Shown piece after piece: positions 21,481-40,150 of a DNA stretch of 48,491 bases (the first letter of the stretch is position 1; every line of letters starts with the position of its first letter). The DNA is taken from positions 1-48,491 of the forward strand of contig JACDAE010000735.1 in the NCBI GenBank assembly GCA_013695595.1, in the 5' to 3' direction. Source of the DNA: Ktedonobacteraceae bacterium (lineage in GTDB: Bacteria; Chloroflexota; Ktedonobacteria; Ktedonobacterales; Ktedonobacteraceae). The position numbers and the translations under genes are program-made. The notes below the pieces were generated by a model that was not told the origin of the DNA, did not search any database, and was given only the letters and a program-made list of their open reading frames with translations.

Positions 21481-21496
21481 ATGCCGAAGGGGGGAC
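21481..21496. repeat. Left attachment site (tRNA-derived repeat)
   Basis: ATGCCGAAGGGGGGAC is identical to 40066-40081, which covers the acceptor and T-stem 3' half of tRNA-Leu. There is no tRNA body here, only the 3' end copy, as expected for the far end of a tRNA-integrated element. Confidence 0.88.
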
Positions 21497-25825: not shown

Positions 25826-25870
25826 ATCTGGGAAGATAGATGAGAGTCGCTGTTAGGGATTGGAGGTACC

Positions 25871-26311: not shown

Positions 26312-26331
26312 GTAGACAAATAAAAACACCC

Positions 26332-26370: not shown

Positions 26371-26382
26371 ATGTATTTAACC

Positions 26383-27482: not shown

Positions 27483-27560
27483 GGTCGTTTTCCCCTTTTT
27501 TTAAGATTGTAAGTGATGATCTGATAAGAGAATTATATCACTTTGTAGTCTATTGGACAA

Positions 27561-28012: not shown

Positions 28013-28041
28013 CATATTCTTAGCAAGAAAGGACGGAGCTT

Positions 28042-28149: not shown

Positions 28150-28282
28150 CCTGGATATCCCCTCTTTCCATCTCTCCATTTCTTTTTCCACGGTTGATCT
28201 AGCCCGTCTGTATCCCCTACAGGCGGTCTAGAATGAGCCTTGATGGGCAAGGTTTTGTTTCTCAATACAAAGGAAAGTTTTC

Positions 28283-28510
28283 ATGAATACACCACCCTGG
28301 AAACAACAACGCATCATTGAGTTACCCCGCTCACAACGTCATACGGAACCGCTTCATACAATTGTTCATCGCGTGCACTGTGGAACTTCCTATACCACGA
28401 ATGATGTCTTTTGCGGCATGTGTGGAGCACCTCTTTGGAAAGAAGAAGTCTCGAATGAGTACACAACCGTCTCATTTGGGCTGACGGTTCCCAGTTGGCA
28501 ACGTGGCTAG
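28283..28510 (+). CDS. Small zinc-ribbon protein
   Basis: A 75-residue soluble protein with VHCGTSYTTNDVFCGMCGAPLW, giving a probable zinc knuckle (CG, then CGMCG). AAAGGAAAG precedes the ATG. No enzyme motif is visible. Its stop codon lies within the first hairpin of the leader at 28505, so translation through the end of this gene could affect folding of that leader. Confidence 0.65.
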   Translation: MNTPPWKQQRIIELPRSQRHTEPLHTIVHRVHCGTSYTTNDVFCGMCGAPLWKEEVSNEYTTVSFGLTVPSWQRG

Positions 28511-28562
28511 CTGGGAGACGCTAGCCTTGGTGGTCAAGGTCTAGAATTTTTGTTCCCCAACA
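28505..28562 (+). promoter_or_regulatory. Tandem-hairpin leader, copy A
   Basis: GGCTAGC/GCTAGCC (28505-28511, 28520-28526) abuts CCTTG/CAAGG (28525-28529, 28535-28539); then GTCTAGAA, GTTCCCCAACA (28552-28562) and AAAGGAG. The same order occurs at 29222-29274 with compensatory changes. A cis-acting RNA element controlling translation, or a processing site, is inferred. Confidence 0.6.
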
Positions 28563-28580
28563 CACAAAGGAGATGATACC

Positions 28581-28736
28581 ATGATTGCTCTTATTGCGCT
28601 GGTTCTTGCGATTGGTTCGGCTGTTGCGTATCCACAGGCAAAGGGTAGTGCCCGTTTTTTTTGCGGTATTGTCATGCTTGCCTCTACGGTCGGGTTTTTA
28701 TACAACATCGTGCATTTTGCTCATCCTGGATTGTAG
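28581..28736 (+). CDS. Small two-helix membrane protein
   Basis: A 51-residue protein beginning MIALIALVLAIGSAVAYP with a second hydrophobic stretch FFCGIVMLASTVGFLYNIV. AAAGGAGATGATACC gives a good site before the ATG. No family is recognised; holin-like, toxin-like or assembly roles are possible but unsupported. Confidence 0.65.
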   Translation: MIALIALVLAIGSAVAYPQAKGSARFFCGIVMLASTVGFLYNIVHFAHPGL

Positions 28737-28758
28737 CCAATGAGAAAGGGAGAAATGT

Positions 28759-29013
28759 ATGTCACGAGAAAAATACACAGTCGCCGGGGAAGTCGTGAGT
28801 GAGAACGGCGTGCAACTGCCAACGATCGTCTTTCCCCACGATGTTCCCATTCTCGAAATTGCAGTACAGGTGAACCGCCTGGAATGGCAAGGATATGAGG
28901 CTCTCTTTGAGAATGAGCAATGGAATGTTTACCTGCAAACGTCAATGGGCCTCAAAAAGAAAAAGAAGGTTGCTCATCTGTCGGATGCGTGGTTATTCAT
29001 CAATGGGTGGTAG
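28759..29013 (+). CDS. Hypothetical 84-residue soluble protein
   Basis: MSREKYTVAGEVVSENGVQL opens a compact beta-rich protein ending LSDAWLFINGW with a GLKKKKKVAHL basic stretch. GGGAGAAATGT precedes the ATG. It lies 22 bases after one tiny membrane gene and 13 bases before another, in the same rightward unit. I do not recognise it. Confidence 0.65.
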   Translation: MSREKYTVAGEVVSENGVQLPTIVFPHDVPILEIAVQVNRLEWQGYEALFENEQWNVYLQTSMGLKKKKKVAHLSDAWLFINGW

Positions 29014-29026
29014 AAAGGTTTAACTC

Positions 29027-29188
29027 ATGAAAAGACCTTTACAGTTGTTCTTAATAAGTTTAGTCGTGCTCACAGCACTGATTGCGGTTAATCGTTGGGA
29101 CTTGTCTGTCATGGTCTGGCTTGCAACCCTCTTTGGAACGCTTGCTTTTGTTTCAGGAATAACGTGTTTGTTTACCCTAGCGAATTAG
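29027..29188 (+). CDS. Small two-helix membrane protein
   Basis: A 53-residue protein with helices LQLFLISLVVLTALIAV and VMVWLATLFGTLAFVSGITC. GAAAGGTTTAACTC precedes the ATG. It resembles the protein at 28581 in size and layout but not clearly in sequence. Confidence 0.55.
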   Translation: MKRPLQLFLISLVVLTALIAVNRWDLSVMVWLATLFGTLAFVSGITCLFTLAN

Positions 29189-29221
29189 TTCAAGGTTGAC
29201 GGGTGCCAGTCGCTCATAGGT

Positions 29222-29274
29222 GGCTGGCAGACGCTAGCCCTGACAATCAGGTGTCTAGAAGGATGTTCCCCAAC
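29222..29274 (+). promoter_or_regulatory. Tandem-hairpin leader, copy B
   Basis: GGCTGGC/GCTAGCC (29222-29228, 29233-29239) and CCTGA/TCAGG (29239-29243, 29247-29251), then TGTCTAGAA and GTTCCCCAAC (29265-29274), then AAAGGAG. Against copy A, the second helix differs at two pairs (UUG/CAA to UGA/UCA) while pairing is kept, which supports an RNA structure. Confidence 0.6.
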
Positions 29275-29293
29275 GCAAAGGAGTGATACGTTT

Positions 29294-29566
29294 ATGGCAG
29301 AAACAAATACCGTTTTTAATGCAGAGAAGCTTGAGAAGGTACAAGCGCTTCTTCAGAGTCTCAAAGAGGATGCACAGAAAGCAGATGCAGACGGCGATAT
29401 GTTTATGTTGTCCGTTTATAATGATCTGCTACATGTGTGTTCCCCGATTGTCGTGAAGTCTCTGGCACGCCTGGAGCGCGAGGAAAACGCCGTTCTCAAC
29501 AAACGTGAAAAGGAGATGCGGAAACAGGTACGTGAGGAACGGGCAGCACAAAAGTTGAAAGCGTAA
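29294..29566 (+). CDS. Hypothetical helical 90-residue protein
   Basis: A charged helical protein: AEKLEKVQALLQSLKEDAQK, then SVYNDLLHVCSPIVVKSLARL and a long basic-acidic helix to the end (NKREKEMRKQVREERAAQKL). AAAGGAG precedes the ATG, just after leader copy B. It probably dimerises; no known family. Confidence 0.65.
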   Translation: MAETNTVFNAEKLEKVQALLQSLKEDAQKADADGDMFMLSVYNDLLHVCSPIVVKSLARLEREENAVLNKREKEMRKQVREERAAQKLKA

Positions 29567-29577
29567 CGTTCTTATGA

Positions 29578-29688
29578 GGGTAAAATCGTGAGTGGTGCTC
29601 ATAGAATGTTGGTGAACACATGAATAGATGTGGACATTTCATAAGCTTGTTATGAGCAGATCATGAGTTTCACGCTCACATTTTACCC
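29578..29688. repeat. Nested long inverted repeat
   Basis: GGGTAAAAT-C-GTGAG (29578-29592) is inverted as CTCAC-ATTTTACCC (29675-29688) with a single bulge, and inside it TGCTCATA (29596-29603) is inverted as TATGAGCA (29651-29658). A motif variant (GTTGGTGAACA, 29608) lies in the apical part. A T-rich tract follows, so termination is possible; a strand-initiation or transfer origin is another option. The rest of 29689-29793 is the leader of the next gene. Confidence 0.7.
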
Positions 29689-29793
29689 CGTTCTTTTTCT
29701 TTTCTTCAATTTCATCAACCATTTACCCCTATAAAACCTAAAATCGTTGTGCGTACTCAAGAAATGTTTTGACACCATTGAAAGGGAAGAGGA

Positions 29794-30759
29794 ATGGCAG
29801 CAAATACAGGGCCATTGGACCCCGCAAATAATCCTGCACCTGCACCTGCACCTGCACCTGCATCACCAAAAAACCAATCAGACCCAGCGGGTACACCTGC
29901 TTCACGCAATACAGGGCCATTAGACGGTCTATGGGGAGCGTTGGGAAACTTCTTCAAAGGTTCAGGTGAACCAAAGGCAAAAAGATACAAAGCAGGAACG
30001 GACCAAGTACCGGAAAAAGAGCAATCTGCTATTGAGAAGATGCGTGATAAACTGGCAGACTTCGATGAAGATTATAAGGATATCGGCGAACGCCTTCTCG
30101 GTGCGTTTGTGCAGGCGGTCGGCTACTTGGGGCCATTTCTGTTAGTCATCTGGGTAGGAAGTGATTTAGGCAAGTACTTTACGCCTGTTATGGATGCCAC
30201 ACCCGCCTATGGACTGGCGTACACGATGGAAGGCATTATTGCGGCTCTTTCAGTGGCAATGGGTCGTTCTTTTGCGGAAGTTGCCAGCGGTAAACCGAAC
30301 TATGGAAAAACCGCCTTAGTTGTGCTCATTTGGGCGGTCTTGAACGCAAGTAGCGCGTTTGGGCTGTATCTGGTCATCACCCACAATGGCAATGTGGCAC
30401 CAGGTATAGAGCAGGTGAGTATGGTCATTAGAGTATGCGCAATTGCCTTGGGTGATTTGGGATGTGCGGCGGTACTCATGTTCAAAGGTCGCTCTATTCA
30501 AAAGCACATTGAAAGTATCAGAAAACGTGCAACGGCAATCGGTGAACTGGCAGACGCCCAACGGGGAATTGAGGAGGCCGATAAAAATGCCGCTTTGCGT
30601 GAGCAGCAAATGAAAGCTACCCTCAAGATACAGGAAGACTTGAGTAACAAAATTGGAGAAGCTGTTTCTATGGTGATGCAATCCATTTTAGAGAAAATGG
30701 AAAAAGCACTCAAGGATGAAGGCAAGGGGAAAAACGAAGGTCGCTATGGGCGTCAGTAA
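29794..30759 (+). CDS. Four-helix membrane protein with Ala-Pro repeat and C-terminal coiled coil
   Basis: A 321-residue protein. The N-terminal cytoplasmic or exposed tail holds NTGPLD twice around an (AP)n run. Four membrane helices span about residues 105-230 (VGYLGPFLLVIWVG, MEGIIAALSVAMG, ALVVLIWAVLNASSAFG, IRVCAIALGDLGCAAVLMF). The C-terminal 80 residues are a charged coiled coil. GGGAAGAGGA precedes the ATG. No Walker motif is present, so it is not a transfer ATPase. It heads a rightward run that reaches the lytic transglycosylase, hinting at a membrane complex. Confidence 0.7.
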   Translation: MAANTGPLDPANNPAPAPAPAPASPKNQSDPAGTPASRNTGPLDGLWGALGNFFKGSGEPKAKRYKAGTDQVPEKEQSAIEKMRDKLADFDEDYKDIGERLLGAFVQAVGYLGPFLLVIWVGSDLGKYFTPVMDATPAYGLAYTMEGIIAALSVAMGRSFAEVASGKPNYGKTALVVLIWAVLNASSAFGLYLVITHNGNVAPGIEQVSMVIRVCAIALGDLGCAAVLMFKGRSIQKHIESIRKRATAIGELADAQRGIEEADKNAALREQQMKATLKIQEDLSNKIGEAVSMVMQSILEKMEKALKDEGKGKNEGRYGRQ

Positions 30760-30778
30760 CAAGTAAGGGAAAGAGGCG

Positions 30779-31273
30779 ATGCAAGAGATTGATGTGTTAC
30801 GTATGCTCATTGCACGGGCAAACAATTATGGTATCAGTGATGTACACCTTCTTCGTGGGCGTCTCTATGCGGTAACGATGAATGAAGAGGACTACACAGC
30901 GGTTGTACTCACTCATTCATTTGCCTACTATGAAAAACGGTATCACATCAGTCGAACAAGGCCCACCCTCATTGTTTGTTACGTGCATGATACCGTTGTT
31001 CCTATCCCCGTGTTATCGATGCGTGCAGGAAACTTTGCAAAAGCGTATGAGCTTCCTGCGGAAATTGAAGATATTGAGAAGCAACGATGGAGTAAAACAG
31101 GGACTCAAGTGCTTATCGGGATGTACATTAGTGGCGTACGCCTGGCACAAACGATTGTAAAAGAACTTCCTGTCTCAACCCGCAATCGGTACTTACAAAA
31201 AGTCAAAGCGCTGGGGCGGCGTCAGCGTGGACGACCTGTGGGCAATCAAAAAAGTTCAAGAAAGGATGCCTGA
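30779..31273 (+). CDS. Hypothetical 164-residue protein
   Basis: MQEIDVLRMLIARANNYGIS opens a soluble protein with a beta-rich middle (HLLRGRLYAVTMNEEDYTAV, TLIVCYVHDTVVPIPVLS) and a strongly basic tail (RRQRGRPVGNQKSSRKDA) that may bind nucleic acid. AAAGAGGCG precedes the ATG. Its stop overlaps the next ATG as TGATG, so expression is coupled. No family is recognised. Confidence 0.65.
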   Translation: MQEIDVLRMLIARANNYGISDVHLLRGRLYAVTMNEEDYTAVVLTHSFAYYEKRYHISRTRPTLIVCYVHDTVVPIPVLSMRAGNFAKAYELPAEIEDIEKQRWSKTGTQVLIGMYISGVRLAQTIVKELPVSTRNRYLQKVKALGRRQRGRPVGNQKSSRKDA

Positions 31274-31353
31274 TGGATAGCACAATCATTGTCCTGTTTA
31301 CCTTGGCTATTGTCCTTGTCATGCTGTTACGTGCATTCTGGAATTGGGAGTAA
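31273..31353 (+). CDS. 26-residue single-helix membrane peptide
   Basis: MDSTIIVLFTLAIVLVMLLR then AFWNWE, one membrane helix. The ATG shares bases with the upstream stop (TGATG), a coupling signal that supports translation. Confidence 0.5.
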   Translation: MDSTIIVLFTLAIVLVMLLRAFWNWE

Positions 31354-31358
31354 ACCGT

Positions 31359-31457
31359 ATGCTGTTTCTTCTTCTCTTCATTCTTTTGTGGGGAGTGATC
31401 ATTGCTGCCTGTTGTTTCGTGATTGCGTTTTGTCTTCAAAAACTGTTTCAGTCATAA
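31359..31457 (+). CDS. 32-residue single-helix membrane peptide
   Basis: MLFLLLFILLWGVIIAACCF then VIAFCLQKLFQS, a single helix with three Cys. GGGAG within the end of the preceding peptide gene serves as ribosome binding site. It is directly followed by a terminator. Confidence 0.5.
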   Translation: MLFLLLFILLWGVIIAACCFVIAFCLQKLFQS

Positions 31458-31520
31458 AGCGGCGGCTCTTTTCTCATAAGACTTGCAATCCTGAAAAGAA
31501 CCACCTTGTACGAATATGAA

Positions 31521-31548
31521 ACCCGCATGTTTAGTATAGCATGCGGGT
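31521..31548 (+). terminator. Terminator before the lytic transglycosylase gene
   Basis: ACCCGCATG (31521-31529) pairs with CATGCGGGT (31540-31548), followed by TTTCTTTT. A related hairpin with the same downstream sequence lies at 32837-32865. Confidence 0.85.
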
Positions 31549-31574
31549 GTTTCTTTTGAAAGAGAGGTATCCTC

Positions 31575-32309
31575 ATGCAACTTACATCACCACCTGTGCT
31601 GATTGGGCTGGTTGTCGCCGTGTTCTTGTTCTTCTTTGTGGTGTCTCGTGGGCGTTCTTCGTCGTCTGCATCAATGCTTCACCCAGCACGGCAAAAACGT
31701 TCAGGATGTGGAAGTGGAACGATCGTCCTGCTTATCCTGCTTGCACTTATCGGAGCGTTTCTCTTTGGTCGTTCAGGGACCGGACTTCCCTTCTCTTTGT
31801 CTTCTTTGACAAATGCGCTTGCCAGTTCACAGCATGCCCTAACGGTTCTTCAAGCATCGATTTCGCAACAACCCTCTTCTTCTGCATACCAATTGTTACC
31901 CATTCCGAAAACAGCCTATCCACAATATGTAGCATTGGCACAAAAAGATGCAAAAGCCATGGGGTTGGTTCCTGCCGTCTTCATTCGGCAAATAAATCAA
32001 GAGTCTGGTTTTGACCCCAACGCAAGCGGGGCGGCTGGTGAAATTGGCATCGCGCAATTCATGCCAGACACGGCGCGTTCTCTGGGAGTGAATGCACACA
32101 ACCCAGAAGCAGCACTCAACGGGGCCGCTCACTTAATGGCAAGCTACTTGCACACCTTTCACGGCGACTATGAACAAGCTCTTGCTGCCTACAATGCCGG
32201 AGGGAAAAGGGTGCAAGACGCGATAGCCAAGGACGGGGCCAACTGGAAACAGAATATCCCTCTTTCAACGCAGCACTATATTGCGATCATTCTGAACGAG
32301 GGGGCATAA
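31575..32309 (+). CDS. SLT-type lytic transglycosylase, membrane-anchored
   Basis: A 244-residue protein with two N-terminal hydrophobic segments (about 8-24 and 48-66) and a C-terminal SLT domain. Catalytic Glu143 sits in RQINQESGFDP; GEIGIAQFMPDTA and LAAYNAGGKRV complete the family pattern. The family cleaves the glycan of peptidoglycan without water to leave anhydromuramic ends; in mobile elements such enzymes (VirB1-like) open the wall for transfer machinery or phage entry. The ATG is preceded by GAGAGGTATCCTC. Its presence argues that the element makes or uses an envelope-spanning structure, though no secretion ATPase is visible. Confidence 0.88.
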   Translation: MQLTSPPVLIGLVVAVFLFFFVVSRGRSSSSASMLHPARQKRSGCGSGTIVLLILLALIGAFLFGRSGTGLPFSLSSLTNALASSQHALTVLQASISQQPSSSAYQLLPIPKTAYPQYVALAQKDAKAMGLVPAVFIRQINQESGFDPNASGAAGEIGIAQFMPDTARSLGVNAHNPEAALNGAAHLMASYLHTFHGDYEQALAAYNAGGKRVQDAIAKDGANWKQNIPLSTQHYIAIILNEGA

Positions 32310-32317
32310 CTAAAACC

Positions 32318-32536
32318 ATGGATGAGAGAAAATTGTCTGTTTCTGAAGGCTCAATTATTGAATTGCGACCTCGTAAGCGTGGGCGTGACACCGTGAAGTT
32401 ATCCAGTGAACAGCGTCAAGATATCCCACAAGAACGGGCGTTGACCACTCTTGCAAAGAAGCATGAAGATCACAAATACGCTACCCCTATCAATCGTAGG
32501 CGTCCTTGGTGGCAATTCTGGAAAAGAGGGAAATAA
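32318..32536 (+). CDS. Hypothetical basic 72-residue protein
   Basis: A highly charged protein (ELRPRKRGRDTVKLSSEQRQ) with an unusual aromatic-basic end (RRRPWWQFWKRGK) that may insert in membrane or bind nucleic acid. It follows the transglycosylase by 8 bases and touches the next gene, so it is part of that operon. Confidence 0.6.
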   Translation: MDERKLSVSEGSIIELRPRKRGRDTVKLSSEQRQDIPQERALTTLAKKHEDHKYATPINRRRPWWQFWKRGK

Positions 32537-32812
32537 ATGACCTTTCTCTATGCAGCACACCTGGCGAGAGAACATGGCTATAGTTCTTGCATCTTCTTGC
32601 CTGCTGATCATCTTCTGTATACCGTAACAAACAACACCTTTGCCCTATTCGCTTCTTGTGAAGAAATTGGGCCAGTACAATGTATCCCCTACATCGATCT
32701 GAGGACGATGAATGACGAACGTCTTCTTACAGCCTTGCAGCAATCATTGTCTCCAACGAGTACCGATAAATCGAAAACACAGCGGCGTGTCTCCAAAAAA
32801 GTACAATCCTAA
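32537..32812 (+). CDS. Hypothetical 91-residue protein
   Basis: MTFLYAAHLAREHGYSSCIF begins a soluble protein with a Lys/Arg-rich tail (DKSKTQRRVSKKVQS). It starts immediately after the preceding stop, with GAGGG in the upstream gene end as its site. No family is recognised. Confidence 0.55.
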   Translation: MTFLYAAHLAREHGYSSCIFLPADHLLYTVTNNTFALFASCEEIGPVQCIPYIDLRTMNDERLLTALQQSLSPTSTDKSKTQRRVSKKVQS

Positions 32813-32836
32813 ATGCATTCCCCTAAAGTGTTGTAA

Positions 32837-32865
32837 CCCCGCATAGCTGAATTGAGCATGCGGGG
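32837..32865 (+). terminator. Terminator before the sigma factor gene
   Basis: CCCCGCAT (32837-32844) pairs with ATGCGGGG (32858-32865), followed by CTTTTCTTT. The downstream stretch GAAAGAAAGGTTTCCTCATGCA is nearly the same as the one after the 31521 terminator. Confidence 0.85.
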
Positions 32866-32891
32866 CTTTTCTTTGAAAGAAAGGTTTCCTC

Positions 32892-33407
32892 ATGCAGCAA
32901 ATGGTTAGAACGGGTGCACCCTCAACACCAACGATTGAAGACCTGTATACTCAGTATCGTCCCTCTCTTGTGAGCTACTTTTCCTCTCATGGCTTTACCC
33001 ATGAAGATGCGGAAGACTTGACGCAAGACACGTTTTTCAAGGCGTGGCAAGCCTTGTCCAAAGTTCAGTATGATAATCTGCGTCCCTGGCTCTACCGTAT
33101 TGCAAAAAACGTGGCGATTGATGCGGCGCGAAAACAACACATGCGAGAATGCAACGCGCCCCAATGTCCCCTTGAGGAAGAATGGTGTGCAGGAATGTGC
33201 AATCAAGAGGAAACAATTCTTACCCGCCTGTCTCTCGTAGAAGCGTTACAGCGTATTCCAGAGCGGTATCGTCGGGCGGTGGTGTTCTCTGCCTATGGCT
33301 TTTCGCTGGCAGAAATTGCAGCACTGGCAAGCTATTCTCCAAAGGCCATAAACACCATTGTCCATCGTGGAAGAAAAGCACTGAAACAATGCTATCAAGA
33401 GGTGTAA
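32892..33407 (+). CDS. ECF-type RNA polymerase sigma factor
   Basis: A 171-residue sigma-70 family factor. Region 2 reads YRPSLVSYFSSHGF, then EDAEDLTQDTFFKAWQALSK and RPWLYRIAKNVAIDAARK; region 4 reads ALQRIPERYRRAVVFSAYG then FSLAEIAALASYSPKAINT and VHRGRKALK. No anti-sigma gene is visible beside it. It may direct transcription of element genes. AAGG before the TTTCCTC leader serves as its site. The region-4 end is intact, so it should be functional. Confidence 0.88.
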   Translation: MQQMVRTGAPSTPTIEDLYTQYRPSLVSYFSSHGFTHEDAEDLTQDTFFKAWQALSKVQYDNLRPWLYRIAKNVAIDAARKQHMRECNAPQCPLEEEWCAGMCNQEETILTRLSLVEALQRIPERYRRAVVFSAYGFSLAEIAALASYSPKAINTIVHRGRKALKQCYQEV

Positions 33408-33410
33408 GCC

Positions 33411-33779
33411 ATGATGTACGTGCGTAAACATCTCTACCCGCCCAATTGGAAAGAGCTTTCTAGAGCATGTAAAGATGCGGCTGGTTGGAGATGTCAACGG
33501 TGTAAGGTTCGCCATGGAGCGAGACGCAAGAGTAAGCGAACAAGGGAATGGTATCGCGTTTGGCTCCATGCGGCACATGTGCATTTGCATGACACGCTCA
33601 ATCCCCACCCATTATTAATGAGTCTCTGTCCTCGCTGTCATGGTCGGTATGATTATCGGTTACGACAACGAGAGAACGTCGTCACCTCGGAACGCTGGAA
33701 ACATCAATGTCGTTTGTCGCAACGTTCTCAAGGGGGTACGTATGCCTCAACCCAAGAAAAAGCCTTTAACCCAGTGTGA
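33411..33779 (+). CDS. HNH-type nuclease-like protein
   Basis: A 122-residue protein with the zinc-braced HNH pattern: WRCQRCKVRHG (first CxxC), LHAAHVHLHDTLNPHPLLMS (AH...H...N) and LCPRCHGRYD (second CxxC and final His). HNH proteins nick or cut DNA and are common in phages and mobile elements. GAGGTG precedes the ATG, 3 bases after the sigma factor stop. Its 3' end overlaps the next gene by 38 bases in another frame. Confidence 0.75.
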   Translation: MMYVRKHLYPPNWKELSRACKDAAGWRCQRCKVRHGARRKSKRTREWYRVWLHAAHVHLHDTLNPHPLLMSLCPRCHGRYDYRLRQRENVVTSERWKHQCRLSQRSQGGTYASTQEKAFNPV

Positions 33780-33948
33780 AAAATATGGGCATTCCTGGAT
33801 GTCTACTACGGCGGATAATTATCAAAAATGTACACGCTCTGGATGCAATGCGGCTCAACGGCTGAGAGCAGGAGTATGGAACACCGTTTCTGTCCAGGGT
33901 GAAAATACGTCTTCAGAAAAGATAGAACGTGTATCCCTTTGGGGATAA
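33742..33948 (+). CDS. Small Cys/His zinc-binding protein
   Basis: A 68-residue protein starting MPQPKKKPLTQCEKYGHSWM with KCTRSGCNAAQRL after it, a C-x4-H and C-x4-C pattern that could bind zinc. AAGGGGG precedes ATG 33742. It overlaps the end of the HNH gene. Confidence 0.6.
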   Translation: MPQPKKKPLTQCEKYGHSWMSTTADNYQKCTRSGCNAAQRLRAGVWNTVSVQGENTSSEKIERVSLWG

Positions 33949-33954
33949 GGAGCA

Positions 33955-34188
33955 ATGCCAGTGACCACAACACCAAGACCTAACAACCCTTATGCCGTTA
34001 TCGACTACGTAAGCCCTGAAGTCAGTACCGTGTTTGCTGAATACCTTGAGTCAGCGTTTACCCTTGGTGACGTGTTGAGGAACAAACCTGCAACGCTACG
34101 TCAACAGGTGCTGACTGAATTGTCCGTGTACTTTGATGTTCGTCATGTTGGGGAACACATTGATCTGTACTTCAAAAAGGAGCAATAA
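33955..34188 (+). CDS. Hypothetical 77-residue protein
   Basis: MPVTTTPRPNNPYAVIDYVS opens a soluble helical protein ending RHVGEHIDLYFKKEQ; VGEH is encoded by a copy of the dispersed motif (34147-34157). AAGGAG precedes the ATG. It is 3 bases before ssb, so it is probably co-expressed in DNA metabolism. Confidence 0.65.
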   Translation: MPVTTTPRPNNPYAVIDYVSPEVSTVFAEYLESAFTLGDVLRNKPATLRQQVLTELSVYFDVRHVGEHIDLYFKKEQ

Positions 34189-34191
34189 CCA

Positions 34192-34632
34192 ATGACCCAG
34201 ACACCAACAAAAGCAAAAATTGAGTCAACCTGGAATGAAGTTACCTTTACCGGAAATTTGGGGAGAGACCCAGAAATGAGTTACACCCCCAACGGGAATG
34301 CCTGTACAAAGTTTTCAATCGCCGTAGGGCAAGGGAAAGATGGGAAGGGAAACTTCAATCCGACCATGTGGCTCAATGTCGAAACCTGGAAGAAGTTTGC
34401 AGAGGACTGCAATAGCAACCTCAAAAAAGGGGCACGCGTTGAAATAAAGGGGCGGCTGGTACAAGATCATTGGGAGAAGGACGGGCAAAAGCGCTCAAAC
34501 TTCAAGGTCGTTGCTCACACGGCGCGATTGCTCAAAAAGAGTGAAGGGCAAGCGGCAACGGGCTTCATTGATGAAGATGGGACAGGCGGTATTGATGAGA
34601 CTGACCCATTTGCAAATGATCATCCTTTTTAG
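34192..34632 (+). CDS. ssb: Single-stranded DNA-binding protein
   Basis: A 146-residue SSB. The OB fold shows WNEVTFTGNLGRDPEMSYTP then ACTKFSIAVG, MWLNVETWKKFAE and LKKGARVEIKGRL. The tail is acidic and ends DETDPFANDHPF, like the SSB tip that recruits DNA-processing proteins. It coats single strands during replication, transfer or recombination of the element. AAAAAGGAG precedes the ATG. It is smaller than most chromosomal SSBs and is likely element-specific. Confidence 0.93.
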   Translation: MTQTPTKAKIESTWNEVTFTGNLGRDPEMSYTPNGNACTKFSIAVGQGKDGKGNFNPTMWLNVETWKKFAEDCNSNLKKGARVEIKGRLVQDHWEKDGQKRSNFKVVAHTARLLKKSEGQAATGFIDEDGTGGIDETDPFANDHPF

Positions 34633-34696
34633 TCCCTCTCTAGTTTTGTACCCCAACACGTTGTTTTCCCTTGTTGTTTTCTTTTGTTTTGTCCTT

Positions 34697-34829
34697 CTCT
34701 CTGTGGGCGGGTGTACCCAATATCCACATCATGAGGGAACGGGTGTCAAGCGCATTGACGCGTAGCGGCAACTTGGCTTGACACCCGTTCCCTCATGATG
34801 TATTTGACACAGCACCCGCCCACAGAGAG
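34697..34829. repeat. Very long perfect inverted repeat between ssb and the methyltransferase
   Basis: Arms 34726-34751 and 34776-34801 are perfectly complementary over 26 bp with a 24-base loop, and outside them CTCTCTGTGGGCGGGTG (34697-34713) pairs perfectly with 34813-34829 over 17 bp, separated by unequal inner loops of 12 and 11 bases. No T tract follows, so it is not an ordinary terminator. Candidates are a single-strand origin, transfer origin, or folded RNA. The rest of 34633-34918 has no gene I can support. Confidence 0.9.
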
Positions 34830-34869
34830 TGAGAAAACATCTCGTCGTAAATAAATACAAGCTATATTC

Positions 34870-34901
34870 AAGCTCTCACTGCTCAATGTACGTGAGAGCT
34901 T
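34870..34901 (+). terminator. Terminator hairpin, first of two identical-arm copies
   Basis: AAGCTCTCAC (34870-34879) pairs with GTGAGAGCTT (34892-34901), then TTT. The same arms occur at 36277-36308. Confidence 0.8.
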
Positions 34902-34918
34902 TTTGTGAGGAGATAATC

Positions 34919-35026
34919 ATGATTGATCTTCAAACACTCTTGTTGTTTGTCTACTGGGTTCCGTTGTTGGTGGTGATTTGCCTGATCATCCTGGGAATTG
35001 TTCTCGGGAATATGAAATGGAAATAG
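34919..35026 (+). CDS. 35-residue single-helix membrane peptide
   Basis: MIDLQTLLLFVYWVPLLVVI then a hydrophobic run ending LGNMKWK. GAGGAGATAATC is a strong site before ATG 34919. The longer in-frame reading upstream crosses a terminator and is rejected. Confidence 0.6.
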   Translation: MIDLQTLLLFVYWVPLLVVICLIILGIVLGNMKWK

Positions 35027-35037
35027 TGTTCCCCAAC

Positions 35038-35089
35038 ACCTGAATAACAAGCGGCTGGTATGGCTCTATCAGCCGCTTGTTATTCAGGT
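35038..35089 (+). repeat. 20-bp perfect hairpin before the methyltransferase
   Basis: ACCTGAATAACAAGCGGCTG (35038-35057) is perfectly inverted at 35070-35089 with a 12-base loop. A motif copy (GTTCCCCAACA, 35028-35038) overlaps its first base. No U tract follows, so a role in mRNA stability or attenuation of the methyltransferase is inferred. Confidence 0.85.
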
Positions 35090-35123
35090 GAGAGTATGCA
35101 GAGCAGAGAAAGCAAAGGAGAGT

Positions 35124-36236
35124 ATGAGTACAGCAACAATACAATTCTGTGGCGCAGGTGGTACGGCTATAGCAGCACAACAAGCAGGAATGCAGGTTGA
35201 AGCGGCTATCAATCATAGCAAGGTTGCAATCGCCTCACATGTTGCTAATCATCCCGCAACCTTACATTACTGTCAATCAATGGAAGAGTGCAATCCTGAT
35301 GATCTTCCTGATAGTAACTTCTTATTGACTTCTCCATGTTGTACTAATCATAGTATTGCGAAGGGACAAAAACACTATCATCAATTTGACCTCTTTGGTG
35401 ATATCGTGTACAACCCCATAGCGGAAAAAAGTCGCAATACCATGAATGATGTTGTACGCTTTGTTGCTGCAAAGAAATGTACAGGGAAACCATATACGTT
35501 TGTGGTTGTCGAGAATGTTATTGATGTTGTGAAATGGTGTCAGTATAGCACCTGGTTAGCCGCATTAATGGCTCTTGGCTATAATCATCAAACCCTCTAT
35601 TGGAATACCCGCTTTTTTGAGGTACCTCAATCGCGAGATCGTGTGTATCTGCTTTTCTGGTTGCGTGATGTGCCTACGCCTGATCTTGAGTATTGCCCTT
35701 TAGCGTGGTGTGCTGGTTGTGAGCGTGAGGTGACAACACAACAATCATGGAAGCAGCAAAAATGGGGACGGTATCAACAACAATATGTGTATTGCTGTTC
35801 GTGGTGTGCGAAAGAGGTTACGCCCTATTCTTCTTCAGTTCGTTCGGTGCTCAATATCGAGACATCGGGCCGGACCGTTGGAGAACGGAAATTAAGTGAG
35901 AATACACGTGTAAATATTCGTGAGGGTATTCATCGTATGGGTGGAGAGCCGTTTTTGCTTGGCTATTATAAACACCCGCTCTATCGTCGTTTGGATGAAC
36001 CAGTAGGCACAATCACAACTCTCGATCGTTGGGCGTTGGTGACACCTGATACATCAGGTACGTTTGAAGCTTGCCGCTTACGCATGTTGTCAGTGCAAGA
36101 AGTCAAGGCGTGTATGGGCTTCCCTGATGATTATCATCTGTGTGGTACCGCAAAAGAGCAAGTATGGATGCTTGGCAATGCCGTTTGTCCCCCTCTTATG
36201 ACGAACCTTTTAAGCAGGTGTATTGCTGTTCTATAA
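35124..36236 (+). CDS. C5 cytosine DNA methyltransferase with zinc-ribbon insertion
   Basis: A 370-residue Dcm-family enzyme that transfers a methyl group from SAM to cytosine C5. Motif I is FCGAGGTAIAAQQAG, motif IV holds catalytic Cys72 in SPCCTNHS, motif VI VVVENVIDVV, motif VIII PQSRDRVYLLFW, motif X MLGNAVCPPLM. Between VIII and the target region sits a CAGC...CCSWC four-Cys ribbon (about residues 198-235), which may help read DNA. AAAGGAG precedes ATG 35124. No cognate restriction enzyme gene is visible, so it is probably an orphan that protects the element. The recognition site is unknown. Confidence 0.88.
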   Translation: MSTATIQFCGAGGTAIAAQQAGMQVEAAINHSKVAIASHVANHPATLHYCQSMEECNPDDLPDSNFLLTSPCCTNHSIAKGQKHYHQFDLFGDIVYNPIAEKSRNTMNDVVRFVAAKKCTGKPYTFVVVENVIDVVKWCQYSTWLAALMALGYNHQTLYWNTRFFEVPQSRDRVYLLFWLRDVPTPDLEYCPLAWCAGCEREVTTQQSWKQQKWGRYQQQYVYCCSWCAKEVTPYSSSVRSVLNIETSGRTVGERKLSENTRVNIREGIHRMGGEPFLLGYYKHPLYRRLDEPVGTITTLDRWALVTPDTSGTFEACRLRMLSVQEVKACMGFPDDYHLCGTAKEQVWMLGNAVCPPLMTNLLSRCIAVL

Positions 36237-36276
36237 CAGTGTACTCACACCGTTAATCACTTTTCTAGGAACGTTC

Positions 36277-36308
36277 AAGCTCTCACTGCTCAATGCAGGT
36301 GAGAGCTT
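36277..36308 (+). terminator. Terminator of the methyltransferase gene
   Basis: AAGCTCTCAC (36277-36286) pairs with GTGAGAGCTT (36299-36308), then TTTT, followed at once by a GTTACCCAAC motif copy (36312). Arms and most of the loop equal those at 34870-34901. Confidence 0.85.
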
Positions 36309-36342
36309 TTTGTTACCCAACTCAATAGTAAAGGAGAGATTT

Positions 36343-36840
36343 ATGAGCAATCGGACGATTGAGTTAAAACCCAACGAAATTATTGTCAATGGACAGAAAC
36401 GAATGCTTATTCAGGGTTCCAAGGTATGGAGTTACAAAGAACGTCAATGCTCAGCACGTGTTACGGTTGTTGATGTCTACTACAAACAATGTAGCATTGT
36501 CACACTCAAAAAATGCCGTGGTGGATATATCAAACGGTATGGGCAAGAGAAAACATGGTATTCTGATCTCCCATCAGTCGTCAAGGCCTATCGAGATGAC
36601 TACTTTGTACAATGGACGGATGAAGGCAATGAGCGACAGGGCATTTTGCAATGGTGTCAGTTTGGCCCTACCGTCGCTCCTATCACGCTTTCACTGACAG
36701 GTGAGGAAATAGACGTGCTTGAACAGGTCGTGGCCTTTGGTGGTGCTTCTGATGTCGAAACCCTGGCAAAACGGGTGATACAGGAGTTTTTGCAAAAGGT
36801 TGTGCTGGTCGAAACGTCGCCGTTAGAACTGCATGGATAG
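36343..36840 (+). CDS. Hypothetical 165-residue protein
   Basis: MSNRTIELKPNEIIVNGQKR begins a beta-rich N-terminal half with many Cys and aromatic residues; the C-terminal 45 residues (LSLTGEEIDVLEQVVAFGG then SDVETLAKRVIQEFLQKVV) look like a small helical bundle. AAAGGAGAGATTT precedes ATG 36343. The longer frame from 36223 crosses the terminator and is rejected. I do not recognise the family. Confidence 0.65.
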   Translation: MSNRTIELKPNEIIVNGQKRMLIQGSKVWSYKERQCSARVTVVDVYYKQCSIVTLKKCRGGYIKRYGQEKTWYSDLPSVVKAYRDDYFVQWTDEGNERQGILQWCQFGPTVAPITLSLTGEEIDVLEQVVAFGGASDVETLAKRVIQEFLQKVVLVETSPLELHG

Positions 36841-36855
36841 AGTCAGGGGCGCGAA

Positions 36856-37119
36856 CTAGTACTCTTCTACTAAGGTTATTGGATAACAAGTATTGCAATA
36901 TGGGTGTAAACCGCCTCTTGGGTGTCCTGGCTTTTTGTTGCGTAAATTTGGATAGTGCAACGTAAGTAGCTCGTTGACTTGTATCATGTTCTTACATTGA
37001 GCACAACGTAACGGTCTGGTTACTTGATACACGTTTCTTCCTTTTGGTTCAGGATAATGAGGATAGGTAGAACCGACTTGAATAAAGGGAGGTTGATATG
37101 AAGTGTTTTTGTCAGACAT
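36856..37119 (-). CDS. Small zinc-ribbon protein
   Basis: An 87-residue protein, one of the few leftward genes on the right half of the element. RCAQCKNMIQVNELL and HPYCNTCYPITL form a four-Cys ribbon. GGAGG precedes ATG 37119. It diverges from the Rep gene with a 189-base gap holding a 13-bp hairpin. A regulatory role is only a guess. Confidence 0.6.
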   Translation of the reverse strand: MSDKNTSYQPPFIQVGSTYPHYPEPKGRNVYQVTRPLRCAQCKNMIQVNELLTLHYPNLRNKKPGHPRGGLHPYCNTCYPITLVEEY

Positions 37120-37210
37120 GCGATATTCCTCCACAGTGCATCTATAACATAGGTTTCTATTCTATCACAAGCAAGAACGGGAAATCCTGAGAATGGTTTC
37201 CCTAGAAAGA

Positions 37211-37246
37211 GTGTAAGAGTCCGATTAGTAACACGGACTCTTACAC
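37211..37246. repeat. 13-bp perfect hairpin upstream of the Rep gene
   Basis: GTGTAAGAGTCCG (37211-37223) is perfectly inverted as CGGACTCTTACAC (37234-37246) with loop ATTAGTAACA. Rep_trans proteins nick DNA at such hairpins near their own gene, so this is a candidate nick site or transfer origin by position. Nothing else is seen in 37120-37308. Confidence 0.7.
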
Positions 37247-37308
37247 CTACAAAAGAGGGTTTGTAAAGCGGCTTCTCAAGAGGGTTCATACGTGAAAGGT
37301 GTTGGTGT

Positions 37309-38511
37309 ATGACAAAAATGCAAATGTCTGGTTTGCCTGGAAAAACAACGGTCTTGATTGCAGGTGTCGATACCTTGATACTCAACGCAAAACAGAAAGG
37401 AGACGATAATACACCAAAGAAAACACAAACACTTCCCCCTGATGTTGGGGAACACTTAGACATCTGGCAAAAGGAAGCAAAGTTCAAAGAAGACCCATAT
37501 GTTACCCCCTGGAAACATGAGAATGTTTTTTTGAAAATGTGGCCTATGGGTGCTCCTGGGTGGACGTGGTTACTGAAAAATGGGTGTATTGACTTGATGA
37601 TAGGGGCACAACTCAATAAGAGCACTCTTGTCCGTGTGCGCTTCTCTAGTGAGTACCTTTGGAAGCGTGGTGTGCATGTGGCGCTCAAAAACACACATGC
37701 ATTCCTCAATGACCTCTTTGGAGAAACATTGTACTTGCAACCTGCGGAAATCCATCTGTGTGCCGATGTAACGGGGCTGGTGATTCCAAAGGACTACGAG
37801 CAGGTGTTTATATCGCGTGCCAAGCTCCAACGCCCTATTAAAGAATCTTACCTCGACAAGCCCATTTATCGCTACAATAAGCTAGAAACGTTGCAATTTA
37901 GCGGACATGGAAGTCCCATGAGTGCAACGATTTACGACAAGCCCAGAGAGATACAAATCAAGTCTCACAAAAAGGTCTGGTTTCATGATCTGTGGAAAAA
38001 GAAGGGCTGGCAGGGAGGTGAGCAGATATGGCGCGTAGAATGTCGTCTCAAGCGAGAATGCTTGAATGAGATGGACATCGAAGAAGCGTATGATCTGCTT
38101 GAAAAAATCCCTGCATTGTGGGCGTACTGTGTTGGACATGTTGGGGAACATGACGGGTGGTTACGAATGGTGAAACCGGACAAAGAAGACAAGAACCGAT
38201 GGCGTTGGGGAACAACAAAGAGTTGGAAAGCGATACAGCAAGCGTTTATGGATGGTTGGAATGGCTATGAAGATATGACCGATGTCCAACGGGAACGCAA
38301 GCGAGAAATTAGCTTGAGTCAAGCCGAAGCCGCTATCGCCGGATACATTGCAACCTATGCTGCATGGTTAGAGGATGGAATAGAACCGTCTGACGATGTC
38401 TCTGTGGTACTCACACGCATCTATGAAAAGATAACTGATCTCTGGGAACGCAAAGGAGTAGACTTTCACTACCTGCGTCGGCAAAAACAATTTGACTATC
38501 ACATTTCGTAG
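37309..38511 (+). CDS. Rep_trans-like replication initiation/relaxase protein
   Basis: A 400-residue protein resembling replication initiators of the Rep_trans group (plasmid RepC, ICEBs1 NicK). Matching stretches are AEIHLCADVTG, SGHGSPMSATIYDKPREI and WRVECRLKRECLNEM, then LWAYCVGHVGEHDGWLRMV. Such proteins nick one strand through a Tyr and start rolling-circle replication or transfer; the active Tyr cannot be assigned by eye. Three copies of the dispersed motif lie within its coding region (37444, 38140, 38204), two of them coding VGEH. A hairpin that may be its nick site lies upstream. AAAGGTG precedes the ATG. Confidence 0.65.
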   Translation: MTKMQMSGLPGKTTVLIAGVDTLILNAKQKGDDNTPKKTQTLPPDVGEHLDIWQKEAKFKEDPYVTPWKHENVFLKMWPMGAPGWTWLLKNGCIDLMIGAQLNKSTLVRVRFSSEYLWKRGVHVALKNTHAFLNDLFGETLYLQPAEIHLCADVTGLVIPKDYEQVFISRAKLQRPIKESYLDKPIYRYNKLETLQFSGHGSPMSATIYDKPREIQIKSHKKVWFHDLWKKKGWQGGEQIWRVECRLKRECLNEMDIEEAYDLLEKIPALWAYCVGHVGEHDGWLRMVKPDKEDKNRWRWGTTKSWKAIQQAFMDGWNGYEDMTDVQRERKREISLSQAEAAIAGYIATYAAWLEDGIEPSDDVSVVLTRIYEKITDLWERKGVDFHYLRRQKQFDYHIS

Positions 38512-38552
38512 TCGAGAAACATAGTTTTGTTACCCAACATAAGGAGAAAGAT

Positions 38553-38738
38553 ATGCAAGGTCAATTTTCTTCACAACCGTTGTTACTCAACATTCCTCAA
38601 GTGATGCAAATGTTAGGTTTAAGCCGTTCCAAAGTTCACAAACTTATCAAACGAGAGGGATTGCCTGTTATGCGCTTTGGTCGAGCAGTACGAATATCAC
38701 TTTCTGATTTAGAACAATGGCTTCAAGAAAGAAAATAA
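38553..38738 (+). CDS. xis: Excisionase-like HTH_17 DNA-binding protein
   Basis: A 61-residue winged-helix protein: LLNIPQVMQMLGLSRSKVHK, then REGLPVMRFGRAVRISLSDL and EQWLQERK, the usual excisionase/AlpA-type domain. It likely bends the att DNA to favour excision and may repress transcription. AAGGAG precedes the ATG, directly after a GTTACCCAACA motif copy (38529). It lies just before the integrase, separated by a strong terminator. Confidence 0.85.
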   Translation: MQGQFSSQPLLLNIPQVMQMLGLSRSKVHKLIKREGLPVMRFGRAVRISLSDLEQWLQERK

Positions 38739-38754
38739 CGTTTAAACAAATTAT

Positions 38755-38794
38755 AAAACCGCCTCATATCACACAATTGATATGAGGCGGTTTT
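38755..38794 (+). terminator. 17-bp perfect terminator between xis and int
   Basis: AAAACCGCCTCATATCA (38755-38771) pairs perfectly with 38778-38794 across a 6-base loop, ending in TTTT. It lies 18 bases before the integrase ATG, so integrase needs read-through or a promoter inside this hairpin region. Confidence 0.92.
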
Positions 38795-38812
38795 ATTGAA
38801 AGGGATAATTCT

Positions 38813-39967
38813 ATGGCGAGACGTGCTAATAAAGAAGGTTCAATATATCAACGTAAAAGTGACGGCAAATGGGTAGCAAGCATCACCTTAGATAATGGAA
38901 GCAGGAAAGTATTCTATGCTGACAATCAAGGTGATGCTCTAAAGAAGCTTAAAAAAGCGGTACAGGAACAGGAGAAAGGTACGTTGGCTGTTGGGCCACA
39001 ACATACGTTAGCTCAGTATCTTGACTACTGGTTAGGTGTGTATAAACCAAGTATACGGCCTCGTAGTCATGAACGATACGAGCAGATTATACGCTTGCAT
39101 CTTGTCCCAACACTTGGTAAAGTTAAACTTGATAAGCTATCACCTCAACACCTTCAAACGCTTTATACAAAAAAGTTAGAAGAAGGTCTTTCTACAAACA
39201 CGGTACTTGTTATTCATGGCATGCTGCATAAAGCTTTAAAAAGTGCAATGCGTTGGGGTATTCTTGCTCAGAATGTTTGTGATCGTGTAGACGTACCTCG
39301 TAAGACGCCTTTTGAGATACACCCTCTCACCGTGGAGCAGATACAAAAACTTATAGCTGCCGTTCGTGGTCATACAAACGAAGCTCTGTTTATTCTTGCT
39401 ATTGCAACTGGCATGCGACGTGGTGAAATTGCAGGTCTTAAATGGCAGGATGTCAATATGGAGCAAGCTACTTTGCAGGTTCAACGTGCCCTAACACGCG
39501 TTCCTACTGCAATGGGAAGTGGCTATCAGGAAGCGGAACCAAAAACAGAGAAAAGTCGTCGCAGTATTGCGCTTCCTGATTTTGCAATAGTAGCCTTGAT
39601 CAAACACCGTGAACGTCAAGAGGTGATAAAACAGAAAGCAGGTGAGTATTGGCAGGAACATGATTATGTGTTTTGTACATCTGTTGGGGAACATATTCAC
39701 CCTGGACATCATATTCTTGAAGAGTTCAAAAAACTTTTGAAAAAAGCAGGTTTACCAGATATCCGTTTTCATGACCTGCGTCATAGTTCAGCGACTCTGC
39801 TTTTAAGTATGGGCACTCATCCAAAGATCGTGCAAGAGAGGTTAGGTCATCACGATATAGGTACCACAATGAACATTTATTCCCATGTGCTACCATCGAT
39901 GCAGGAAGGTGCTATGAAGCAGATGGATACCCTGTTTGGAGAGAAACCAAAGGACTCTAAATCGTAG
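38813..39967 (+). CDS. int: Tyrosine-family integrase of the element
   Basis: A 384-residue site-specific recombinase. The N-terminal arm-binding domain (RRANKEGSIYQRKSDGKW, about 1-55) precedes a SAM-like core-binding domain (about 65-160) and the catalytic domain. Catalytic residues are all present: R202 (TGMRRGEI), Lys in KTEKSRRS, H320 and R323 (FHDLRHSS), H346 (GHHD) and Y356 (MNIYSHVLP). It recombines the 16-bp core with tRNA-Leu and lies 98 bases from it. AAAGGG precedes the ATG. A copy of the dispersed motif codes SVGEHI at 39683. Confidence 0.95.
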   Translation: MARRANKEGSIYQRKSDGKWVASITLDNGSRKVFYADNQGDALKKLKKAVQEQEKGTLAVGPQHTLAQYLDYWLGVYKPSIRPRSHERYEQIIRLHLVPTLGKVKLDKLSPQHLQTLYTKKLEEGLSTNTVLVIHGMLHKALKSAMRWGILAQNVCDRVDVPRKTPFEIHPLTVEQIQKLIAAVRGHTNEALFILAIATGMRRGEIAGLKWQDVNMEQATLQVQRALTRVPTAMGSGYQEAEPKTEKSRRSIALPDFAIVALIKHRERQEVIKQKAGEYWQEHDYVFCTSVGEHIHPGHHILEEFKKLLKKAGLPDIRFHDLRHSSATLLLSMGTHPKIVQERLGHHDIGTTMNIYSHVLPSMQEGAMKQMDTLFGEKPKDSKS

Positions 39968-39987
39968 CAGCTACATACGTTGCTACA
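39963..39987. repeat. Right arm-type integrase-binding repeats
   Basis: TTGCTACA (39980-39987) repeats the octamer found at the left end; AGCTACA (39969-39975) and the inverted CGTAGC (39963-39968) are partial copies. They overlap the integrase stop codon and lie about 80-100 bases from the att core. Confidence 0.5.
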
Positions 39988-40012
39988 TTAAGAGAAAATA
40001 GAGGGATACAAA

Positions 40013-40049
40013 AACGTCTCAACCCGCTTCTGGCCTGGGCTGAGACGTT
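40013..40049 (+). terminator. Hairpin after the integrase gene
   Basis: AACGTCTCAACCC (40013-40025) pairs with GGGCTGAGACGTT (40037-40049) with one mismatch and an 11-base loop. It lies between int and the att core, mirroring the terminator at 21438 beside the old integrase. Confidence 0.65.
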
Positions 40050-40065
40050 GAGTAACAAACGATTA

Positions 40066-40081
40066 ATGCCGAAGGGGGGAC
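40066..40081. repeat. Right attachment site within tRNA-Leu
   Basis: ATGCCGAAGGGGGGAC equals 21481-21496. It covers the discriminator, acceptor 3' strand and T-stem 3' strand of the tRNA gene, the usual target of tyrosine integrases. Confidence 0.9.
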
Positions 40082-40150
40082 TCGAACCCCCATACCCTTT
40101 CGAGTACAACGCCCTGAACGTTGCGTGTCTACCAATTTCACCACTTCGGC
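40067..40150 (-). tRNA. tRNA-Leu (anticodon CAG)
   Basis: Read on the minus strand: acceptor GCCGAAG/CTTCGGC, D arm GTG...CAC, anticodon arm CAACG-TTCAGGG-CGTTG giving CAG, a 15-base variable arm typical of tRNA-Leu, T arm GGGGG-TTCGAGT-CCCCC and discriminator A. CCA is not encoded. Its 3' end faces the integrated element, which restores the sequence through the att core. Confidence 0.97.

What the first reader, a model, noticed from the sequence alone, without database searches (positions are those of the whole stretch)
34697..34829. Exceptional perfect inverted repeat (26 bp plus 17 bp) between ssb and the methyltransferase
The two paired arms have no mismatch and enclose unequal internal loops and a 24-base apical loop, yet there is no U tract. 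A structure this strong would fold as single-stranded DNA, next to an SSB gene, which suits a single-strand or transfer origin, or a folded-strand recombination site. An abundant hairpin RNA is an alternative.
Basis: partly seen in the sequence, partly recalled or inferred. Interest (0 to 1): 0.75.

Follow-up and report, generated by a model that had tools for sequence, protein, structure and literature searches.

The report
Folded-strand replication start on integrated element
A 133-base stretch folds into a near-perfect double hairpin on an integrated mobile element of a soil bacterium, and its anatomy and relatives suggest that, when the element is single-stranded, it offers RNA polymerase a ready-made starting place for copying the second strand.

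Summary
It is one copy on an ~18.6-kb element (21481-40081, att repeats at tRNA-Leu) of a Ktedonobacteria (Chloroflexota) MAG. The element encodes a Rep whose model matches only pT181-type rolling-circle initiators. A separate small hairpin with a conserved loop (37211-37246) just before rep is the better nick-site (dso) candidate. The reported hairpin lies 5' of it on the same strand, where most rolling-circle plasmids keep their single-strand origin. Related elements keep the fold with other stem sequences (L039, L054, L059, L073). A covariance model finds about 40 sites in 18 of 47 class genomes, also at the 3' end of IS110-like and IS3-like insertion sequences. Conserved are GTCAAG/CTTGAC at the stem top and, in IS members, a promoter TTGA(C/T)A-N16/17-TANNNT whose -35 and spacer lie in the stem while the unpaired loop starts at about -11, like an RNA-polymerase open complex. 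Most likely: an RNA-polymerase-dependent single-strand origin/folded ssDNA promoter (0.55). The window's own -10 (TATTTG) is weak and function is untested. Terminator, MITE and nick-site readings are disfavoured.

The parts
34697..34713 (+). outer stem, 5' arm (17 bp)
   Evidence: 100% complementary to 34813-34829
34714..34725 (+). left internal loop (12 nt)
   Evidence: unpaired in the DNA centroid fold
34726..34751 (+). inner stem, 5' arm (26 bp), ending in TGTCAAGC
   Evidence: GTCAAG shared by relatives
34752..34775 (+). apical loop (24 nt) holding GCGTAGCGGC (34760-34769)
   Evidence: same 10-mer in the loop of L103; GCGAAGCGGC in IS110-type copies
34776..34801 (+). inner stem, 3' arm
34778..34783 (+). 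TTGACA, -35-like hexamer at the stem top
   Evidence: sequence; conserved in relatives
34801..34806 (+). TATTTG, weak -10-like hexamer 17 nt after TTGACA; its second base (34802) is the first unpaired base of the right internal loop
   Evidence: sequence and fold; TACACT/TATACT at this place in IS members; not called by the promoter scan
34802..34812 (+). right internal loop (11 nt)
34813..34829 (+). outer stem, 3' arm
34192..34632 (+). ssb
   Evidence: PF00436, E 1.9e-24
35088..36236 (+). C5 cytosine DNA methyltransferase (likely start ATG 35124)
   Evidence: PF00145, E 4.3e-25
37211..37246 (+). dso/nick-site candidate: 13-bp hairpin, loop ATTAGTAACA
   Evidence: loop YAGTAWCA in variable G+C stems before rep in 13 loci by exact match, 15 counting L038 and L059 read from the fold
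37309..38511 (+). rolling-circle replication initiator (Rep_trans/pT181 fold)
   Evidence: AF2 model pLDDT 84.6; only Foldseek hits below 1e-3 are 4cij, 4cwc, 4cwe; weak PF02486
38553..38738 (+). small conserved protein between rep and int (excisionase-like by position)
   Evidence: homologues in the same place in relatives
38813..39967 (+). tyrosine integrase
   Evidence: PF00589, PF14659
40066..40081 (+). attachment repeat at the 3' end of tRNA-Leu (40067-40150, minus strand)
   Evidence: 16 bp identical to 21481-21496; tRNA
21481..21496 (+). other attachment repeat, left end of the element

Best explanation
The hairpin is a single-strand origin (sso) of an integrated rolling-circle element, working as a folded single-stranded promoter. 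Steps: (1) the excised element is nicked by its Rep at the small hairpin before rep (inferred); (2) leading-strand synthesis displaces the rep-sense strand, and the hairpin region, 5' of the nick, is displaced last (inferred from the layout); (3) the displaced strand folds into the nested hairpin (energetics computed, folding in the cell inferred); (4) the inner stem offers a duplex -35 (TTGACA) and 17-bp spacer, the 11-12-nt internal loop is an already open bubble starting at about -11, and the outer stem is the downstream duplex, so host RNA polymerase can start without melting (geometry shown, binding inferred); (5) the primer copies the 5' arm outward and DNA polymerase extends it into the second strand (inferred).
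For: Carrier is a rolling-circle element: Rep model matches only Rep_trans initiators, also a Rep of a 1.7-kb Mesotoga plasmid. Separate dso-like hairpin before rep in 13-15 loci. Nested hairpin 5' of the dso region on the same strand in window, L039, L054, L059, L073, L050, L061, L063 and L052, at 0.14-2.9 kb from rep, matching the usual sso position (PMC4595007). Structure kept while sequence changes: 51 double-change cells against 19.1+-3.4 in shuffles, 0 of 500. No significant R1 hit in 400 kb of control DNA from the same class. Stem/bubble border 23-25 nt after the start of TTGACA in 16 members, i.e. bubble from about -11; TANNNT at that place in nearly all IS-type members once oriented by transposase.
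Against: Window -10 (TATTTG) matches 3 of 6 and no promoter is called. L054 and L059 have a shorter inner stem and their better -10 is on the other arm. The same hairpin type occurs in IS110/IS3 elements, which are not rolling-circle replicons. Several rep loci (e.g. L037, L043, L053) show no such hairpin. Covariation counts include pairs fixed by how the seed sites were chosen. Nicked strand and replication direction are inferred. No experiment.
Confidence: 0.55

Rival explanations
1. Frpo-like single-stranded promoter of a leading region: during transfer the strand folds and RNA polymerase expresses early protective genes (methyltransferase, ssb) before the second strand exists.
For: Hairpin lies between ssb and a methyltransferase here, and between ssb and an unrelated D12 adenine methyltransferase in L039; SSB and methyltransferase genes are typical leading-region cargo and Frpo folds carry -35/-10 in a hairpin (PMC11541004).
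Against: To express these + sense genes the folded strand must be the minus strand, whose -10 position (TGGATA; AGGGGT in L039) is poorer than that of the plus strand. Relatives keep the hairpin without these genes. No transfer genes recognised in the element.
Confidence: 0.17
2. Ordinary double-stranded promoter for the methyltransferase genes (or, in IS members, for transposase or guide RNA in the excised circle), with the inverted repeat acting as operator or cruciform.
For: TTGACA-N17-TATTTG reads towards the methyltransferase; IS110-type members have near-consensus promoters reading out of the IS end, and IS110/IS1111 circles use junction promoters (PMC11187229).
Against: A double-stranded promoter does not explain long perfect repeats whose sequences change while pairing is kept, nor the bubble position.
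Confidence: 0.15
3. Structured RNA or read-through barrier: transcripts from ssb (or transposase) fold into the hairpin and act at the RNA level.
For: Very stable as RNA; lies 3' of ssb and of transposases; a T-rich or terminator-like stretch often precedes it.
Against: No U tract, no terminator call, no Rfam match; conserved TTGACA and -10 in IS members are not needed for an RNA.
Confidence: 0.09
4. Origin of transfer or nick site, or a MITE or REP-like repeat.
For: Strong hairpin on a mobile element.
Against: Another hairpin with a conserved loop sits at the nick-site position before rep; single copy, no DNA relatives in 60 genomes beyond short loop matches; no target duplication seen at the ends.
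Confidence: 0.04

Closest known systems
RNA-polymerase-dependent single-strand origins of rolling-circle plasmids and ICEBs1 sso1
   Same: Non-coding strong hairpin on an element with a Rep_trans-type initiator; placed 5' of the dso as in most rolling-circle plasmids (PMC4595007).
   Different: ICEBs1 sso1 lies downstream of oriT and has three stem-loops with sequence similarity to plasmid sso's; here two nested stems are perfect and stem sequences are free to change. The loop TAGCGG resembles the CS-6 motif known to me (TAGCGT/A); that comparison is from memory.
Frpo/ssi single-stranded promoters of conjugative plasmids
   Same: Folded strand presenting -35 and -10 to RNA polymerase; neighbours ssb and methyltransferase (PMC11541004).
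   Different: Bubble placed as a separate internal loop between two perfect stems; in the window the better-placed promoter would copy antisense to ssb; no conjugation genes seen.
pT181/Rep_trans and MOBT nick hairpins (CT'AA in a G+C-rich hairpin loop)
   Same: The second hairpin at 37211-37246 has this form (PMC9371924).
   Different: Loop is YAGTAWCA, not CT'AA; the reported hairpin itself is larger and elsewhere.
IS110/IS1111 circle-junction promoters and seekRNA non-coding regions
   Same: IS members of this hairpin family sit in the 3' non-coding region of IS110-like IS and carry an outward promoter.
   Different: The window has no IS110 transposase; the IS promoter here is complete inside the hairpin and not formed at the junction.

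Membership tests
single-strand origin (sso) | carried by an element that replicates as a rolling circle | tested here: met
   Rep fold matches RepSTK1/RepDE only; dso-like hairpin before rep; replication itself not shown
single-strand origin (sso) | non-coding, strongly folded region | tested here: met
   z -13.9 as DNA; no plausible gene over it
single-strand origin (sso) | fixed orientation, usually 5' of the dso | tested here: met
   5' of rep/dso in nine rep loci; loop orientation agrees with rep in window, L039, L054, L059, L063, L108, L163
single-strand origin (sso) | known sso sequence motifs (CS-6, RSB) | tested here: inconclusive
   loop TAGCGG is near CS-6 as remembered; no DNA match among plasmid records
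single-strand origin (sso) | promotes second-strand synthesis, orientation-specific | not testable with these tools
   needs the plasmid assay
Frpo/ssi ssDNA promoter | -35 and -10 inside the folded strand at 16-18 bp | tested here: inconclusive
   clear in IS members, weak in the window
Frpo/ssi ssDNA promoter | folded strand is the template of early genes | tested here: inconclusive
   better -10 is on the arm that would give RNA antisense to ssb; nicked strand unknown
intrinsic terminator | hairpin followed by a U tract | tested here: not met
   and the sequence
MITE / REP-like repeat | several near-identical copies in the genome | tested here: not met
   one copy in an 88.6%-complete genome
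IS110 seekRNA/bridge RNA region | adjacent DEDD transposase | tested here: not met
   no IS110 transposase in the window
Rep_trans/MOBT nick hairpin | CT'AA in the loop of a G+C-rich hairpin | tested here: not met
   neither the reported apical loop nor the loop at 37224-37233 has CTAA

The most novel reading that the evidence does not exclude
A lineage-specific class of DNA element, found so far only in Ktedonobacteraceae and relatives, in which a strand folds into a ready-made RNA-polymerase open complex (duplex -35 and spacer, roughly 9-13-nt bubble from -11, downstream duplex). It is shared by unrelated mobile elements (rolling-circle elements, IS110-like and IS3-like insertion sequences) as a device that starts transcription or priming only, or best, when the DNA is single-stranded.
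Probability: 0.35. Interest if true: 0.8.

Novelty: new variant of a known kind. Interest (0 to 1): 0.62.

Why it matters
If right, it adds a third, structurally clean type of folded-strand promoter to Frpo and plasmid sso's, in a phylum where no single-strand origin is known to me, and on insertion sequences where none is expected. Stem lengths, bubble and hexamers are so regular that a single oligonucleotide can test whether RNA polymerase reads a strand folded into an open-complex shape. It would also explain how these elements replicate and would tie ssb and methyltransferase neighbours to single-stranded entry.

Tried and rejected
DNA-level search of plasmids and of 60 relatives gave no full-length relative, only 27-40-nt loop or stem matches. 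Rfam: only the tRNA. A first alignment of whole nested hairpins was poor (A2) and was replaced by the inner stem (A3). The Rep alignment could not be used for the genome-contig scan. Terminator, MITE, attC-like and oriT readings were considered and set aside. I suspected a second nested type in L039 (4265-4385) and L055; too few members to judge. That the IS110 hairpin is itself the guide RNA was considered because one internal loop (TCTTCTTCT) is complementary to the purine-rich insertion sites; not pursued.

Full report
Observation. The repeat is exactly as reported: a 26-bp and a 17-bp perfect inverted repeat, nested, with 12- and 11-nt internal loops and a 24-nt apical loop. As single-stranded DNA it folds at -61 kcal/mol, 14 standard deviations below shuffles; the minus strand is similar. 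There is no U tract and no terminator call.

Surroundings. The window is a Chloroflexota (Ktedonobacteria) MAG contig; the class was identified from named relatives. The hairpin lies on an element bounded by a 16-bp repeat of the tRNA-Leu 3' end (21481-21496 and 40066-40081) with a tyrosine integrase next to the tRNA gene. Genes include an ECF-type sigma factor, a lytic transglycosylase, ssb, a C5 methyltransferase and a 400-aa protein without a significant Pfam match. An alignment of seventeen members of that protein family gave a model (pLDDT 84.6) whose only Foldseek hits below 1e-3 are the rolling-circle initiators RepSTK1 and RepDE; weak Rep_trans profile hits and a hit to a 1.7-kb Mesotoga plasmid agree. 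So the element very likely replicates as a rolling circle after excision. No transfer or coupling protein was recognised among the proteins I scanned.

Two hairpins. Immediately before rep, 13 loci carry a short hairpin with variable stem and loop YAGTAWCA by exact match (window 37211-37246), 15 counting two read from the fold. That is the form of Rep_trans and MOBT nick sites, though without their CT'AA (PMC9371924). The reported hairpin is a different structure 5' of it, 2.4 kb away here, about 3 kb before rep in L039, about 150 bp before rep in L054 and L059, 0.85 kb in L073. In most rolling-circle plasmids the single-strand origin is upstream of the dso so that it becomes single-stranded last (PMC4595007).

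Conservation. Nested hairpins of the same plan were found in L039 (16 + 25 bp, again just behind ssb, followed by an unrelated D12 methyltransferase), L054, L059, L073 and, with a split inner stem, L050, L052, L061, L063. Stem sequences differ and pairing is kept; only GTCAAG/CTTGAC at the top and parts of the apical loop are shared. In an alignment of 13 inner stems 13 of 19 pairs show changes on both sides (51 cells against 19.1+-3.4 shuffled). Seven of the 19 pairs were partly fixed by how sites were picked, so the outer 12 pairs carry the evidence. Control DNA of 400 kb from the class has seven nested repeats, none with GTCAAG, and no significant model hit.

Wider family. The pattern TGTCAAG-N3-30-CTTGACA is several times commoner in the class than its reversed control, and the covariance model finds about 40 sites in 18 of 47 genomes. 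Contexts: rolling-circle elements with two Rep subfamilies; integrase elements; the 3' end of IS110-like insertion sequences (five near-identical 1.7-kb copies in G024 and five in G021 with a diverged sixth); IS3-like elements; and sites without a recognised transposase that share flanks. An exact pattern for the IS-type loop occurs only in Ktedonobacteria records among 84,980 species and not in IMG/VR.

Promoter geometry. In IS-type members the right arm reads TTGA(C/T)A, 16-17 nt, TANNNT (TACACT, TATACT, TAGACT, TAAACT); the left arm has the same TTGACA by symmetry but no -10 (the printed spacing is one more than the true one, and L103, L158, L165 must be turned round, which the transposase position or shared flanks justify). 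The stem ends and the internal loop begins 23-25 nt after the start of TTGACA in the window, L039, L050, L061, L102, L106, L107, L154, L156, L157, L160, L165, L167, L168, L170 and L171. Thus the -35 and spacer are duplex, the loop opens at about -11 and is mostly 7-13 nt long, and the outer stem is the downstream duplex: the shape of an open complex. I read this as a promoter built to work on a folded strand. In the rolling-circle members the -10 is weaker: the window has TATTTG (A at -11, no T at -7), L039 GATACA, L073 TACACT, L052 TACTGT; counted by eye, A at -11 is present in about 10 of 12 right arms against about 4 of 12 left arms. L054 and L059 are exceptions. IS110 copies are related to each other, so they count as few independent events.

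Mechanism. On the displaced rep-sense strand the right arm is the non-template strand, and the RNA would copy the left arm outward towards the 5' side, which suits a primer for second-strand synthesis. For a Frpo-like role driving the methyltransferase, the minus strand would have to fold, and its -10 position is poorer. I therefore prefer a single-strand origin over a leading-region promoter, with moderate confidence; nothing functional has been shown.

Known kind. It works like an RNA-polymerase-dependent sso or Frpo (PMC4595007, PMC11541004). I do not file it as a proven member: activity cannot be tested here, the window's -10 is weak, and no sequence similarity to known sso's was found. 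The shared presence on insertion sequences and the clean open-complex geometry appear new to me; a limited search of open papers found no account of such folds on insertion sequences.

Noticed in passing
35037-35060 / 35067-35090: Another near-perfect 24-bp hairpin (6-nt loop, no clear T tract) directly before the methyltransferase start.
   Followed up: no
34867-34906 and 36274-36313: A 40-bp hairpin with T5 tail (CAAGCTCTCACTGCTCAATG...) repeated at 95% identity on either side of the methyltransferase gene: repeated terminator or attenuator.
   Followed up: no
25131, 28544, 34640, 35020, 36304, 38521 and in reverse 34137, 37434, 38130, 25282, 38201: Dispersed near-palindrome TGTTCCCCAACA in the element, several copies between genes; possible operator of an element-wide regulator.
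   Followed up: no
38753-38796: 19-bp perfect hairpin (ATAAAACCGCCTCATATCA, 6-nt loop) between the small conserved gene and the integrase; looks like a bidirectional terminator.
   Followed up: no
20630-21346: Second, shortened tyrosine integrase just outside the left att repeat: probable older element in tandem at the same tRNA site.
   Followed up: no
24646-24957 and 27680-28010: Pair of related ~300-bp direct repeats inside the element (83% identical, with a 30-bp identical core).
   Followed up: no
21481-40081: Element with rolling-circle Rep, Ssb, ECF-type sigma factor and lytic transglycosylase but no recognised transfer ATPase or capsid gene; Rep relatives occur in 24 of 47 class genomes.
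   Followed up: partly
L050, L052, L054, L059, between the big hairpin and the dso hairpin: Tandem TAGACCA repeats, possible Rep-binding iterons.
   Followed up: no
L104, L105, L154-L160, L165, L168, L169: IS110-like insertion sequences with a complete outward promoter inside a nested hairpin 3' of the transposase; in L105 an internal loop is complementary to the purine-rich insertion sites.
   Followed up: partly
L167 and G024 C1/C2 ends: Dictyobacter aurantiacus contigs 1 and 2 carry the same hairpin 6.2 kb from each of their four ends, suggesting inverted terminal repeats or linear replicons (or an assembly effect).
   Followed up: no
L197 8820-8880: Second member of the hairpin type in the window's own genome, with TTGTAT instead of TTGACA.
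   Followed up: partly
L039 4265-4385 and L055 12961-13074: Possible second nested-hairpin type (CTTGAC... and TAGACT internal loop) upstream of rep.
   Followed up: no
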